Positions 6,050 to 46,605 of a DNA stretch of 64,000 bases are shown piece after piece. A model generated the notes under the pieces. It did no database searches. It saw only the letters and a program-made list of their open reading frames with translations, and had not been told where the DNA came from. Source of the stretch: a virus; the IMG/VR virus record IMGVR_UViG_3300030099_001508, positions 1-64,000 of that record. One strand, written 5' to 3'. The first letter of the stretch is position 1, and each line of letters starts with the position of its first letter. Made by a program: the position numbers and the translations under genes.

Positions 6050-7450
6050 ATGAGTAAGAAAAAGAACTCGGCTGTACCGCCGTTCAAACCAATTCAATCA
6101 CAACCACAATTAACACCACTGAAGAATCTTCTTGATATGAAGGATAGTACTTACATTGATGAGTCATTTATGTCTGAAGGTAGATGGTCTGTAGAGGATG
6201 AGAAATCATATGTTCTTAATCTTTTAAGAGGATTGTGTATTACACCATATATTATTGCTGATGCAAAAAGATGTTTAGAATACTGTAAGTCTATTTCAGA
6301 TGAACAATCTATCAAATACTATGAAGAGGTCATACAGAAGAAAAAGAAAACTAAAATTACTTGTGATAGTAATAACAGACAAACAACTCTTAGAAAATTA
6401 AGAGATGGTGATATTCCTTTTCCAAAAGGAACATATACACTTAATACTGCGAATGGCCCTCATGTTTTGAATTTATCTGAGGATACTTACTATGATGATT
6501 TACCAGAGGAATCAAAACCATTTGTTGATGCAATCACACTATTAAAAATTACAATTACCGAAGCTACGAGAAAAAATCTTGCAGAAGTTTTTGATGCTGT
6601 TAATAGAGGTGTCACTCAAAATGCACAAGAGTTAAGACAATCTTGGTTTTCTAATTTTGCACAACCAATTAGAGATTTGGCTAGAAAGTATCATGATAAA
6701 TTTCTAGAGTCTGGTCTTACAACTCAAAAAGAAATTAACAGAAGAACGATTGATGAATTTCTTGTAGATTGTGTGCATTTTTATATTTCTGGAACAGAAC
6801 TAAAATATAATAAAGGTGAGAGAGATAACTACTACAATGAAGATTCAAAAGGAACAAGTTCAGTTGGTCATGTAAAATCAATTTTACATAACATTTGGTT
6901 TGCACCAAAAACTGCACCATACAACATTACAAAAAGAACTATTTTTGTTAACTTTATGATGAGAACATTTTTGAGTAAAAATAACTATAAAATTGTAAAT
7001 CATAAAAAATTTGATGAGTGGTTATATTCAGTTGATTTTAAATGGCAAGATAGTTGTCCACATAAACTAGTATTGGATACTGGTATTAGTTATGAGTATA
7101 AATCTGCTGGTAGATTTCATGTTGATTTTATTAAGTGGAACTTTGGTATTTGGTTAAATGAGTTAACAAAGTATATTGAAGAGGAACAAAATATTATTTC
7201 TCTTGATGATACTAGACTTGCAACTCCATATCAAAAATTAGAATTGTGGCATATCCAAGATGGTCTTTGTCCAGAAACTAAAACCAAAATTCCTTACAAC
7301 GAAATATTGGACTCAACAAAGTGGCACGCTGACCATATTCTGGAACACACAAATGGTGGGTTAACAGAACTTGATAATTTAAGATTGGTTTCAGCTACCT
7401 TTAACTTATCAAGACCAATGGGGGATATACCAATTACAATGGGAGATTAA
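6050..7450 (+). CDS. DUF262-like protein with C-terminal HNH nuclease
   Basis: 466 residues. The N-terminal half resembles the DUF262/ParB-like fold of GmrS: CDSNNRQTTLRKLRDGDIPF (105-124) sits where the DGQQRxTT loop is expected, and LAEVFDAVNRGVTQNAQELR resembles the 'IFxxINxxGxxLxxxEIR' helix. The C-terminus is an HNH nuclease: LCPETKTKI, WHADHILEHTNGG, then DNLRLVSATFN. DUF262 plus a nuclease is the layout of GmrSD and related anti-phage systems; here the gene is the phage's own, with its own promoter. It could be a superinfection-exclusion nuclease, a host-DNA nuclease or a mobile gene. Confidence 0.7.
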   Translation: MSKKKNSAVPPFKPIQSQPQLTPLKNLLDMKDSTYIDESFMSEGRWSVEDEKSYVLNLLRGLCITPYIIADAKRCLEYCKSISDEQSIKYYEEVIQKKKKTKITCDSNNRQTTLRKLRDGDIPFPKGTYTLNTANGPHVLNLSEDTYYDDLPEESKPFVDAITLLKITITEATRKNLAEVFDAVNRGVTQNAQELRQSWFSNFAQPIRDLARKYHDKFLESGLTTQKEINRRTIDEFLVDCVHFYISGTELKYNKGERDNYYNEDSKGTSSVGHVKSILHNIWFAPKTAPYNITKRTIFVNFMMRTFLSKNNYKIVNHKKFDEWLYSVDFKWQDSCPHKLVLDTGISYEYKSAGRFHVDFIKWNFGIWLNELTKYIEEEQNIISLDDTRLATPYQKLELWHIQDGLCPETKTKIPYNEILDSTKWHADHILEHTNGGLTELDNLRLVSATFNLSRPMGDIPITMGD

Positions 7451-43437: not shown

Positions 43438-43663
43438 TGCTGGTGGGAAAGATGAAACACCTTTGTGGATACCAGAGTTGGTTTTTGATTCACAAGAAGA
43501 GTGTATGACTTTTGCAAGAAATAATCAAATAAGACTTTTTAGTAAATCTGCAAGTGCATACAACAATAAAGTTTTACCCACTATGATGAATTGTGTCAAT
43601 CAAGACATAATGGAAGAAATAGGTCAATTGTACGGAAAGAAGCAAAATGAGAAAAACATTTAG
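43397..43663 (+). CDS. Small exported two-cysteine protein (family member 3)
   Basis: 88 residues. MKWFIIVVMTAQLSAGG as signal-like start, then VFDSQEECMTFARNN (C36) and TMMNCVNQDI (C66). Member of the five-gene family; begins inside the exonuclease gene. Confidence 0.62.
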   Translation: MKWFIIVVMTAQLSAGGKDETPLWIPELVFDSQEECMTFARNNQIRLFSKSASAYNNKVLPTMMNCVNQDIMEEIGQLYGKKQNEKNI

Positions 43664-44012
43664 TGCATTGGTTTTATCACTTGTTCTAACAACAAGTGCG
43701 TATGCAGAACATGAAAAGAATACCTACAATTCACAAAAACCAGTAAGTTGTAATACAGTAGAAAACGTAACTAACCTTATTGGTGGTCAATTTGGTGAAC
43801 TTCCATATATGCAAGGAGATGGTCTTGCGGCTGCAATTGATGGTCAACAATTTATTAAGACACAAATAGTTCTTGCAGTTAACCTAGAAACTAATACGTT
43901 CAGTGTTGTAGAAATAATTAATCCACAACTTGCGTGTATTATTGCTGGTGGTAATAACTTTAGATTTAATAAACCACCATCACAAAAAACGAATATCGTA
44001 TTGGGGAATTAA
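43647..44012 (+). CDS. Periplasmic hypothetical protein
   Basis: 121 residues with a clear signal peptide (MRKTFSALVLSLVLTTSAYA, cut before EHE). Mature part has two Cys (PVSCNTVENV and LACIIAGGNN), probably a disulfide. Family unknown; it overlaps the preceding exported protein. Confidence 0.68.
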   Translation: MRKTFSALVLSLVLTTSAYAEHEKNTYNSQKPVSCNTVENVTNLIGGQFGELPYMQGDGLAAAIDGQQFIKTQIVLAVNLETNTFSVVEIINPQLACIIAGGNNFRFNKPPSQKTNIVLGN

Positions 44013-44438
44013 ATGTACGAGTACAAATGTAAAATGGTTAGAGTGGTTGATGGAGATACAGTTGATGTAGACATTGACTTGGGGTTCGGTGTTTGGATGC
44101 GAAATCAACGTATCCGAATGTATGGTATTGATACACCAGAATCTAGAACATCTGACAAAGTAGAAAAAAAATATGGAAAAGCTGCGGCCGCATTTTTAAC
44201 AAAATGGACAAATGCTGGTGACCTTACCTTGAAAACATTCAAAGATGATAGAGGTAAGTTTGGACGTATTTTGGGTGAACTTTGGTTTGGTGGTGAACAC
44301 AATATCAATCAACTCTTAGTAGATAATCATCATGCAGTTCGTTATCATGGACAATCTAAAGAAGAGATTAAAGAAGAGCATCTTGCAAACAGAGAAAAAT
44401 TACATTTAGACCAAATGAAAAATGCACTTGACTATTAA
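44013..44438 (+). CDS. Staphylococcal-nuclease-like nuclease (SNase)
   Basis: 141 residues. MVRVVDGDTVDVDIDLGFGV, RIRMYGIDTPESR and FKDDRGKFGRILGEL carry the SNase catalytic Arg, Asp, Glu and Arg set. No signal peptide. It could help degrade host nucleic acid. The final codons ALDY encode the -35 of the tmRNA promoter. Confidence 0.85.
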   Translation: MYEYKCKMVRVVDGDTVDVDIDLGFGVWMRNQRIRMYGIDTPESRTSDKVEKKYGKAAAAFLTKWTNAGDLTLKTFKDDRGKFGRILGELWFGGEHNINQLLVDNHHAVRYHGQSKEEIKEEHLANREKLHLDQMKNALDY

Positions 44439-44458
44439 GAGTGTTTGTGGTATAAATA
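44428..44458 (+). promoter_or_regulatory. Overlapping early and late promoter for tmRNA
   Basis: TTGACT (44428-44433), 17 bp, TATAAA within TATAAATA (44451-44458). The same eight bases serve as sigma70 -10 and T4-type late box, suggesting expression throughout infection. Confidence 0.75.
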
Positions 44459-44462
44459 GAAT

Positions 44463-44720
44463 CACAATTTGTTGATACAAATCGAAGACTGGGCAGGACA
44501 TGGGGGCAGTACCCATCACCTCCACCATAACTAAACCTCGATTGAGGGGGTGAACTAGGTTCGACTGACAGAGATAGAGGCGAGTAGAATTGTCGGATGA
44601 CTGCGTGATAGGTCAAAACTGTAAATGCAAACGATAACTTTGCGCCTGTTGATTATGCTCTCGCAGCCTAATTAAACTGAGTTTTGATGGTGTACTTGGA
44701 AACAGAAACACCATCACCAG
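44463..44720 (+). ncRNA. ssrA: Circularly permuted tmRNA (two-piece type)
   Basis: No gene protein-coding between 44439 and 44743; this region is a tmRNA. Acceptor piece first: T-arm ATGGG-GGCAGTA-CCCAT, then CACCTCC plus ACCA ending at 44526. Short intervening segment 44527-44545. Coding piece starts with GGGGGTG (44546-44552), which pairs with CACCTCC to rebuild the acceptor stem, followed by AACTAGGTTCGACTG. The tag reading frame 44627-44671 encodes ANDNFAPVDYALAA and stop. A 9-bp hairpin (44685-44693 with 44708-44716) closes the 3' part. This order is that of alphaproteobacterial permuted ssrA. It would rescue stalled ribosomes and tag their peptides for proteolysis. Confidence 0.92.
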
Positions 44721-44743
44721 ATTATAAATTAGTGGAGAAAAGT

Positions 44744-45091
44744 ATGAGACAATGGATATATGATTGCTGGAACGGTGTGATGGATGCAGAGACTAATCCA
44801 CTAAGACACATCCCTCATTTACAAACTAGACATATGATATTACAAATACTTGCATGGGTATGGTGTGCTACATTTGCTCAACTCATAGGTAGTTGGTATG
44901 TTTTTGGTTTTAGTGCAATTGCTCATGTCATTTTATTAGCAACAATCGTACTCACAGTGGCTACATTTGAAACTGCAAAACGAAGACCTACATTTTTTCT
45001 AAGAGGTGGATATCATACACCAAGTCGTGCTAGAACCATTTGGGTAAATGGTAAAAAAATAGAAGACCCATATGGTGGAGAACACGAATGA
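44744..45091 (+). CDS. Membrane protein of unknown function
   Basis: 115 residues from the ATG at 44744 (RBS GTGGAG); an upstream ATG at 44684 would overlap the tmRNA 3' hairpin. Two spans (ILAWVWCATFAQLIGSWYVF and AIAHVILLATIVLTVATF) with basic ends. No family recognised. Confidence 0.62.
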   Translation: MRQWIYDCWNGVMDAETNPLRHIPHLQTRHMILQILAWVWCATFAQLIGSWYVFGFSAIAHVILLATIVLTVATFETAKRRPTFFLRGGYHTPSRARTIWVNGKKIEDPYGGEHE

Positions 45092-45768
45092 CCCAAGTAA
45101 ATTTTAAACCCATTTTTCCTAGTCCTTTAGGTTATGTTAACTTTGGTAATGCAAATAAAGATTTAAATAAACAACTTATCAAAGATATGGAACAAGAAAG
45201 GAAAGAGGATATTGGTAAAAGTGCAACATTTAAAACTAATCAATGTGCATGGCAATCTCTTGGAAAAATGGAAGATAGGTGGGAAAGTTTTTCTACATTG
45301 CGTGAACAGATTACAAGAGCTTGTATTCCTATTCTAAAACATAGTGGAATTTCTGATATGGTCGCACCATTTGTAGATGTTTCTAATCTATGGGGTAATA
45401 TTATATTTGATGCTGGTGGATTTTCTAAACCACATACTCATGGAAGTGGTCACACACTGTGGAGTGGTGTTTACTATCCCAAAGGTGTAGATGATATTGA
45501 AGACCTAGATGAATTTGATGAGGAAAAAACTATTATTAATGGTTGGGTCAGAGATGATGGTATGTTGATATTATTTGACCCAGCCTATGTTACTAAAACA
45601 TTAATTACAACTAAATTTGACAATAAAGAATTTTATGGAAGTGACGTTTCTGTAATACCAAGAGAATCATTATTAGTTTTATTTCCAACTTGGATGTTAC
45701 ACATGGTAACACCCTTGACAAGAAAAGAAAAAAGATATAGTATATCTTTTGGTATTCATAAACCATAA
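45088..45768 (+). CDS. 2OG-Fe(II) oxygenase-like protein
   Basis: 226 residues. FSKPHTHGSGHTLWSGVYYP supplies the H-x-H/D pair and LFPTWMLHMVTPLTRKEKRY the distal His and Arg of the phage-common 2OG-FeII oxygenase family (PF13759-like). Substrate unknown. Coupled to the previous gene by ATGA. Confidence 0.75.
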   Translation: MTQVNFKPIFPSPLGYVNFGNANKDLNKQLIKDMEQERKEDIGKSATFKTNQCAWQSLGKMEDRWESFSTLREQITRACIPILKHSGISDMVAPFVDVSNLWGNIIFDAGGFSKPHTHGSGHTLWSGVYYPKGVDDIEDLDEFDEEKTIINGWVRDDGMLILFDPAYVTKTLITTKFDNKEFYGSDVSVIPRESLLVLFPTWMLHMVTPLTRKEKRYSISFGIHKP

Positions 45769-45778
45769 AGAGGAATTA

Positions 45779-46012
45779 ATGGAAGAAGTCGAAGAAAAAT
45801 TAATGACACCTAAAAAGTTTTCTATCGCAATAGAGAAAACAGTTAAAGAGTCTGGTGGAACTTATATGGATGCACTATTAGATTACTGTGAAAAGTATCA
45901 GTTAGAACCAGAGATGATTAAACCCTTGATAACTAAATCTTTGAAAGAAAAGGTTGAGGTAGATGCAAGAAACCTTAACTATCTTCCAAAGGTTGCAACA
46001 CTACCAATATGA
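45779..46012 (+). CDS. 33: Late-transcription coactivator, gp33-like
   Basis: 77 residues from the ATG at 45779 with AAAGAGGAATTA upstream. KKFSIAIEKTVKESGGTYMD, ALLDYCEKYQLEPEMIKPLI and SLKEKVEVDARNLNYLPK fit the short gp33 homologues of marine T4-like phages, which bridge RNA polymerase and the clamp at late promoters. Its presence fits the TATAAATA boxes found here, though the gp55 sigma is not in the window. Confidence 0.72.
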   Translation: MEEVEEKLMTPKKFSIAIEKTVKESGGTYMDALLDYCEKYQLEPEMIKPLITKSLKEKVEVDARNLNYLPKVATLPI

Positions 46013-46605
46013 TGGAAGCATACGAAGCCTATAAAATATATCATGCACTAAAGTTACACTTTAATAGTGACTATGATTACAACAAATATAATGGAAAAGC
46101 GAAAGTAACTGTAGATTCATATCTCAAGAGAAAAGATAGACCTTTCTTTGCAAAAGTAGCACGAAAGTATCTTACTCCAGAAAACACCAAGAACTTTTTC
46201 ATATCTAATTTTATTGTTAATCCTAAAGGTTGGGTTGGTAACTTTAACGAACAAAACTATGATGAATATCGTAAAAGAAATCAGAGTTTGAAGTATAACT
46301 ATAAAAATGAAATAGCTGAATTATTTCAAAAAATTTCAGTATTTGATGAATTATTTCATGTAAAAGAAGGTCAACATCCTTTGTTATTAAAACAATTCCT
46401 TGCAAAGAAAGTTAGTATTGAGACTATGTGTATTATGGAAACTTTACTTGAATATTGTAAATATTGGAATGAGGATATTGAGGAGCAATATGTTTGGAAA
46501 GAACAAGAAAAACTTATAAAAAATTACAGTTCTGTCTTGACTTTTGATAAAAGTTTGTATAAGATAATTACAATGTCAACCTTAAAGGAGTGTCTAAATG
46601 GATGA
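46009..46605 (+). CDS. 59: Helicase loader gp59-like
   Basis: 198 residues. EAYEAYKIYHALKLHFNSDY with DYNKYNGKAKVTVDSYLKRK is the typical gp59 start, and FFISNFIVNPKGWVGNF follows. It loads gp41 onto gp32-coated DNA. Gene order gp33-gp59-...-gp32 is T4-like. Confidence 0.85.
   Translation: MMEAYEAYKIYHALKLHFNSDYDYNKYNGKAKVTVDSYLKRKDRPFFAKVARKYLTPENTKNFFISNFIVNPKGWVGNFNEQNYDEYRKRNQSLKYNYKNEIAELFQKISVFDELFHVKEGQHPLLLKQFLAKKVSIETMCIMETLLEYCKYWNEDIEEQYVWKEQEKLIKNYSSVLTFDKSLYKIITMSTLKECLNG

What the first reader, a model, noticed from the sequence alone, without database searches (positions are those of the whole stretch)
44463..44720. Phage-encoded, circularly permuted tmRNA with tag ANDNFAPVDYALAA
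Seen: acceptor piece ending in CACCTCC-ACCA (44526), 19-nt spacer, coding piece starting GGGGGTG, tag frame 44627-44671 with stop. Known: this acceptor-first order is characteristic of alphaproteobacterial two-piece tmRNA. Inference: the phage supplies its own ribosome rescue and can choose how aborted peptides are tagged; a tag differing from the host's could alter protease recognition.
Basis: partly seen in the sequence, partly recalled or inferred. Interest (0 to 1): 0.88.

Follow-up and report, generated by a model that had tools for sequence, protein, structure and literature searches.

The report
Phage-encoded two-piece tmRNA gene
A T4-like phage, probably marine, carries its own intact and evolutionarily maintained copy of the bacterial ribosome-rescue RNA in its split, circularly permuted form; this kind of gene is already published for related phages, but in several relatives protein-coding genes sit between the two halves of the RNA gene, which I found nowhere described.

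Summary
Window 44464-44718 (+) is a complete circularly permuted (two-piece) tmRNA gene with tag ANDNFAPVDYALAA, found by ARAGORN and two Rfam models. The contig is a T4-like myophage. The gene is the same ssrA already published in phages Melnitz and Mosig (PMC9004378), so it is a new member of a known kind.

New evidence favours a working gene. It is present in all 60 testable relatives at the same place. A73-CCA and G3:U70 were kept in all 133 viral copies examined. Helices show compensatory changes, the tag is under purifying selection (pN/pS 0.20), and many copies have a promoter-like element at a fixed distance. Viral copies group apart from bacterial ones. The tag is not host-like (SAR11 tags are 9 aa; the ANDNFAPVDYA motif is in none of 84,980 genomes), but it ends in the ordinary ALAA. 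No phage smpB was found, so host SmpB is needed.

In relatives, the discarded intervening segment can contain intact protein genes (499 nt in one case, three assemblies). One is a homologue of the gene just downstream of the window's tmRNA. Expression was not tested.

The parts
44428..44456 (+). Sigma-70-like promoter: TTGACT (44428-44433), 17 nt, TATAAA (44451-44456)
   Evidence: Read from the sequence. A promoter-like motif occurs in 62 of 123 unique viral tmRNAs against 1.8 expected in shuffles, 47 of the 62 with the -10 ending 70-71 nt before the CCA end; in the window this distance is 71. The tool's stricter scan does not list it because it demands T at the sixth position of the -10.
44464..44527 (+). 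Acceptor piece of the tmRNA: P2 5' strand ACAATTT 44464-44470; T-stem 44500-44504/44512-44516 with a 7-nt loop; acceptor 3' strand CACCTCC 44517-44523; A73 44524; encoded CCA 44525-44527
   Evidence: RF04321 alignment; compensatory changes in T-stem, P2 and the inner stem across 51 unique sequences
44528..44545 (+). Intervening segment (IVS), 18 nt, presumably removed on processing; no ORF here, but this is the place where relatives carry genes
   Evidence: IVS lengths in relatives:
44546..44718 (+). Coding piece: acceptor 5' strand GGGGGTG 44546-44552 (forms G3:U70 with CACCTCC), AGGTTCGAC motif, P2 3' strand GAATTGT 44587-44593, pseudoknot region, tag, 3' hairpin. The exact 3' end is inferred from the alpha_tmRNA model
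44627..44671 (+). Tag reading frame ANDNFAPVDYALAA plus TAA; resume codon GCA (Ala)
   Evidence: purifying selection on the tag, pN/pS 0.20 over 29 unique 14-aa tag DNAs
44685..44716 (+). 3' hairpin TGATGGTGT / ACTTGGAAACAGAA / ACACCATCA downstream of the tag
   Evidence: Present in 52 of 52 unique relatives, with compensatory stem changes and a conserved loop
44744..45091 (+). Small membrane-like protein gene (115 aa from ATG) directly downstream, no terminator-like site between it and the tmRNA; its homologue lies between the two halves of the tmRNA gene in related contigs L632-L634

Best explanation
The locus is a functional phage ssrA gene of the permuted, two-piece kind. Host RNA polymerase starts at the promoter-like element about 8 nt upstream of the acceptor piece and makes one precursor, which probably runs on into the downstream small-protein gene. 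Host tRNA-processing enzymes cut out the 18-nt intervening segment, leaving an acceptor piece with an encoded CCA and a coding piece, held together by the 7-bp acceptor stem with G3:U70 and by P2. Host AlaRS charges it, and host SmpB and EF-Tu deliver it to stalled ribosomes. The nascent chain then receives the tag ANDNFAPVDYALAA, whose ...ALAA end sends it to host ClpXP-type proteases. During infection this most likely keeps ribosome rescue running when host transcripts, including host tmRNA, decline and mRNA breakage rises. Shown: anatomy, conservation, covariation, selection on the tag, absence of smpB in the records searched. Inferred: expression, processing, charging, tagging, benefit to the phage.
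For: ARAGORN and two Rfam covariance models. tmRNA present in 58 of 60 neighbour-sampled loci with enough sequence by ARAGORN, and the two others carry the acceptor and coding motifs. A73-CCA and G3:U70 in 133 of 133 viral copies. Compensatory base-pair changes in P2, inner stem, T-stem and acceptor stem over 51 unique sequences and in the 3' hairpin. Tag pN/pS 0.20; Ala at position 1 and Ala-Ala at the end invariant. Promoter-like element at a fixed distance. Same gene at the corresponding place in Melnitz and Mosig. T4-like gene content.
Against: No RNA data. No smpB in the phage records, so the function depends on a host partner that cannot be tested because the host is unknown. The tag matches no bacterial genome exactly, so compatibility with a host's proteases and adaptor is assumed. 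Only 17 of 47 Melnitz-like contigs were reported to have the tmRNA (PMC9004378), so such phages can do without it.
Confidence: 0.85

Rival explanations
1. A recently captured, non-functional piece of a host ssrA gene, as left by imprecise prophage excision.
For: Host ssrA is a known integration site, and acquisition through a temperate phage was proposed for Melnitz (PMC9004378).
Against: Complete with promoter-like element, tag and 3' hairpin; conserved at one place in 60 of 60 testable relatives; covariation and purifying selection; viral copies form one side of a branch (SH-aLRT 82) apart from SAR11 and other alphaproteobacterial copies.
Confidence: 0.04
2. A decoy or inhibitor that occupies SmpB and ribosomes and suppresses host trans-translation, as reported for the tag-less tmRNA-like RNA of phage DS6A.
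For: A phage tmRNA-like RNA (DS6A) inhibits endogenous tmRNA in E. coli (PMC11915505). In infected cells a strongly expressed phage tmRNA would compete with the host's.
Against: Here the tag is kept, in frame, with Ala-Ala at the end and pN/pS 0.20. A decoy would not need a tag.
Confidence: 0.05
3. A working tmRNA whose main use is to redirect tagging: the phage tag changes which protease or adaptor sees the tagged chains, for instance to recycle host protein or spare phage protein.
For: The tag is phage-specific (hosts). In some relatives the critical C-terminal region varies (AQAA, AIAA, ANAA). PMC9004378 suggests tagging of host proteins for recycling.
Against: The window's own tag keeps ANDN at the start and ALAA at the end, the ordinary pattern, so no altered recognition is indicated for this copy.
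Confidence: 0.06

Closest known systems
ssrA of Methylophilales phage Melnitz EXVC044M (MZ577097.1) and its three sister isolates
   Same: Permuted tmRNA of alpha type, tag ANDNYVPVDYALAA, same neighbourhood (PhoH, PD-(D/E)XK nuclease, late-transcription coactivator, helicase loader, ThyX); 81% DNA identity over 87% of the query
   Different: IVS 142 nt with an ORF of 54 aa from its ATG against 18 nt; Melnitz has a glutamine riboswitch (RF01739, 52.8 bits) directly after ssrA, the window has none
ssrA of Pelagibacter phage Mosig EXVC030M (MT647606.1)
   Same: Permuted alpha-type tmRNA between the PD-(D/E)XK nuclease and the late-transcription accessory gene
   Different: Nine-residue SAR11-like tag GEDNFALAA; 44-nt IVS; only about 79% identity over a fifth of the query
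Rfam RF04321 tmRNA_permuted / RF01849 alpha_tmRNA (bacterial two-piece tmRNA)
   Same: Order of pieces, encoded CCA, G3:U70, T-arm, tag, 3' hairpin loop
   Different: Viral copies form their own lineage, mostly carry a 12-14 residue tag (14 here) and often a much longer IVS (18-499 nt in nearly all, against mostly 2-26 nt in the hosts sampled)
tmRNA-like RNA of mycobacteriophage DS6A
   Same: Phage-encoded tmRNA relative
   Different: DS6A lacks the tag reading frame and inhibits host tmRNA (PMC11915505); here the tag is kept

Membership tests
Permuted (two-piece) tmRNA, RF04321 / RF01849 | Covariance-model score above the curated threshold | tested here: met
   119.9 (cut-off 47) and 106.9 bits (cut-off 50)
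Permuted (two-piece) tmRNA, RF04321 / RF01849 | Acceptor piece upstream of coding piece, separated by an IVS | tested here: met
   44464-44527, IVS 44528-44545, coding piece from 44546
Permuted (two-piece) tmRNA, RF04321 / RF01849 | tRNA-Ala-like acceptor: 7 bp with G3:U70, A73, CCA, T-arm of 5 bp with 7-nt loop | tested here: met
   Window and all 133 viral copies examined have G3:U70 and A73-CCA; compensatory changes
Permuted (two-piece) tmRNA, RF04321 / RF01849 | Resume codon and short tag frame ending in Ala-Ala, then stop | tested here: met
   GCA ... GCA GCC TAA; Ala1, Ala13, Ala14 invariant in 29 unique 14-aa tags; pN/pS 0.20
Permuted (two-piece) tmRNA, RF04321 / RF01849 | Precursor cut into two stable pieces | not testable with these tools
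   Needs RNA-seq ends or Northern blot
Permuted (two-piece) tmRNA, RF04321 / RF01849 | Works with SmpB, charged with alanine, tags nascent chains | not testable with these tools
   No smpB in the phage record or in six relatives' records; host unknown
ssrA of Melnitz/Mosig-type T4-like marine phages | Homologous ssrA in the nuclease - late-transcription coactivator - gp59 - ThyX block of a T4-like phage | tested here: met
ssrA of Melnitz/Mosig-type T4-like marine phages | Glutamine riboswitch next to ssrA (reported for Melnitz; not a defining feature of the group) | tested here: not met
   None in window 43500-46500 at E up to 1; PMC9004378 says the riboswitch is common but not defining

The most novel reading that the evidence does not exclude
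In the phage lineage to which this tmRNA belongs, the intervening segment between the two tmRNA halves is a place where real protein genes settle, so one precursor carries both halves of a ribosome-rescue RNA and an mRNA between them. The gene directly downstream of the window's tmRNA is one that sits between the halves in a sister phage. If the nested frames are translated from the precursor, processing of tmRNA and expression of the small membrane proteins are coupled.
Probability: 0.6. Interest if true: 0.72.

Novelty: new member of a known kind. Interest (0 to 1): 0.45.

Why it matters
As a phage tmRNA it adds a well-supported member to a published group and shows by selection, not only by annotation, that such genes are kept working, with a tag that is the phage's own. 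Viral copies form a lineage of their own, so the gene has probably been a stable phage gene for a long time instead of a recent pick-up from a host. The relatives with protein genes between the tmRNA halves would matter more: they would be a case where the discarded part of a structural RNA precursor doubles as an mRNA, and they would be directly testable.

Tried and rejected
Glutamine riboswitch as in Melnitz: looked for around the window's tmRNA, absent. Phage smpB: absent. Identical tag in bacteria: none; a looser 14-residue tag pattern gave 0 of 385 alphaproteobacterial genomes. SAR11 as donor: tags are 9 aa and the tree does not join the two. An unnamed alphaproteobacterial order (that of G290) has 12-residue tags ANDNFAPVALAA, AVAA, AMAA, AKAA, closest in wording to the window's (ANDNFAPV+DY+ALAA), but the tmRNA tree does not place the phage copies inside it, so I do not claim it as host. 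The promoter scan tool did not list the promoter because of its fixed rule for the -10; the comparative count is the better test (that script ended with an error after printing its counts). Nested ORFs as chance: for IVS of 100 nt or more, 17 of 49 exceed 95% of dinucleotide shuffles (about 2.5 expected; related copies included), so many shorter ones may be chance. The ORF in the Melnitz-type IVS that runs 42 nt into the coding piece remains undecided (only three close sequences for the rate test). The tmRNA tree rests on 155 columns and 52 of 112 inner branches are unresolved.

Full report
Check of the observation. ARAGORN finds exactly one RNA gene in the window, a permuted tmRNA at 44435-44762 + with tag ANDNFAPVDYALAA. 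Rfam finds the same place with RF04321 (119.9 bits, 44464-44671) and RF01849 (106.9 bits, 44424-44718), both more than twice the gathering score. Reading the sequence: acceptor piece 44464-44527 ending CACCTCC-A-CCA, IVS 44528-44545 (18 nt), coding piece from GGGGGTG at 44546, tag 44627-44668, TAA 44669-44671.

What carries it. The record is a 66.6-kb viral contig. Its genes include T4-type DNA polymerase, DnaB-type helicase, ribonucleotide reductase, baseplate and tail proteins, and around the tmRNA PhoH, endolysin, a PD-(D/E)XK-type exonuclease, an SNase-type nuclease, a 2OG-Fe(II) oxygenase, the late-transcription coactivator, the gp59-type helicase loader and ThyX. Nearest cultured phages by the gp59-type loader are Melnitz (43.8%) and HTVC008M (39.9%). 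So it is a T4-like phage related to the Melnitz and pelagimyophage group, but not close to any cultured one.

Known precedent. Melnitz and Mosig carry ssrA in the same gene block, and Buchholz et al. 2022 (PMC9004378) described the Melnitz gene as a two-piece, permuted, alpha-type tmRNA, with 53 two-piece cases among phage tmRNA structures, 50 of them aquatic. The tmRNA database of 2025 holds 79 phage sequences (PMC11915505). The finding as such is therefore a new member of a known kind.

Is it functional? Viral contigs were sampled by the neighbouring nuclease, without regard to the tag. Of 80 loci, 60 have a tmRNA call or at least 1.8 kb downstream of the nuclease; a tmRNA is called in 58 and the other two carry both motifs. 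In 133 viral copies from all samples, A73-CCA and G3:U70 are present in every one (the search itself required CCA and at least 6 of 7 acceptor pairs, but not A73 or the G:U pair). An alignment of 51 unique sequences with the IVS left out shows compensatory changes in P2, the inner stem, the T-stem and the acceptor stem. The 3' hairpin after the tag is found in 52 of 52 with compensatory stem changes and a conserved loop. Over 29 unique 14-residue tag DNAs pN/pS is 0.20, with Ala1, Asn2, Asp3, Ala13 and Ala14 invariant. A TTGACT-N17-TATAAA element sits 71 nt before the CCA end; a motif of that kind occurs in 62 of 123 viral copies against 1.8 expected from shuffles, and in 47 of those 62 it lies at 70-71 nt. 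A short tree (155 columns) puts the 62 viral copies on one side of a branch (support 82) apart from SAR11, an unnamed order, and other alphaproteobacteria. These facts point to an old, working phage gene.

The tag. ANDNFAPVDYA occurs in none of 84,980 bacterial and archaeal genomes. SAR11 genomes, found through a 16S probe recalled from memory that returned almost only Pelagibacteraceae, carry a permuted tmRNA in 176 of 197 cases, with 9-residue tags in all those read: ANESYALAA, ANNKLALAA, ANDELALAA and similar. Mosig's GEDNFALAA looks like these; the window's tag does not. Other alphaproteobacteria have ANDNFAPVALAA and ANDNRAPVALAA. The window tag equals the first with DY inserted. It keeps ANDN at the start and ALAA at the end. 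From general knowledge of SsrA tags, the end is the ClpX-binding part and the start the SspB-binding part, so ordinary degradation is the likeliest fate. Some relatives end in AQAA, AIAA or ANAA, where altered turnover would be worth testing.

Mechanism. One transcript, cut by host tRNA-processing enzymes into two pieces, charged with alanine, working with host SmpB (no phage smpB in the window's record, Melnitz, Mosig or four other viral contigs). Expression and processing are inferred.

Beyond the coordinates: genes between the halves. In viral copies the IVS is 18-499 nt in nearly all, in sampled hosts mostly 2-26 nt. In several phages it contains protein genes. (a) A 69-73 aa protein with one hydrophobic stretch lies in the IVS of L454-L457, L459, L463, L514, L019 and L014; homologues elsewhere lie outside the tmRNA, often near it; pN/pS is 0.27 for nested and 0.22 for outside copies. 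In L456 the IVS ends are an inverted repeat, TAATTACAT/ATGTAATTA, that includes the stop codon. (b) A 68-aa DUF2061-like protein in L090 (window-identical tag) and L097. (c) ORFs of 63, 67 and 77 aa in L543, L532 and L051. (d) In L632, L633 and L634, three assemblies of the same phage type, 499 nt separate the halves and hold a 34-aa ORF and a 120-aa gene. The 120-aa protein is homologous to the product of window 44744-45091, the gene directly after the window's tmRNA. The Rfam model still spans the whole of L633 869-1555 at 63 bits, and the other nested cases tested also score above the gathering cut-off. Chance alone does not explain the long frames: 17 of 49 IVS of 100 nt or more beat 95% of dinucleotide shuffles. 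The two long host IVS seen (L428, L438) show no comparable gene by eye. In the literature searched, an IVS with a tRNA gene and one with a repeat are reported (PMC11915505), but I found no protein genes in phage tmRNA IVS. Most subscription papers were out of reach, so this novelty claim is provisional. No expression data exist here.

Verdict. The finding is right; its central claim was already published for relatives.

Noticed in passing
L632/L633/L634 (e.g. L633:869-1555 +): Permuted tmRNA gene whose halves are 499 nt apart, with a 34-aa ORF and a 120-aa gene between them; the 120-aa protein is a homologue of the product of the window's gene at 44744-45091. Seen in three separate assemblies; RF04321 spans it at 63 bits.
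   Followed up: yes
L454-L457, L459, L463, L514, L019, L014 (e.g. L456:2501-2719 +): A 69-73 aa membrane-like phage protein gene lies inside the tmRNA intervening segment; relatives of the gene in other phages lie outside it. Purifying selection in both.
   Followed up: yes
L090 and L097: 68-aa DUF2061-like gene inside the tmRNA intervening segment; L090 has the same tag as the window.
   Followed up: partly
L002 (Melnitz ssrA, about 6106-6250), L165, L194, L203: An ORF of about 50 aa starts in the intervening segment and runs 42 nt into the tmRNA coding piece (...YDGGELGST...); not annotated in Melnitz. Whether it is translated is open.
   Followed up: partly
L124, L152, L154, L165, L194, L491 and others: Phage tmRNA tags ending AQAA, AIAA or ANAA instead of ALAA, which might change proteolysis of tagged chains.
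   Followed up: partly
L003:7207-7414 + (Mosig): manA RNA motif (RF01745, 64 bits, gathering 55.2) just upstream of the putative rubrerythrin gene.
   Followed up: no
L036: ARAGORN reports an odd short tag AGSWPLA for this viral permuted tmRNA; not checked whether the call or the tag is wrong.
   Followed up: no
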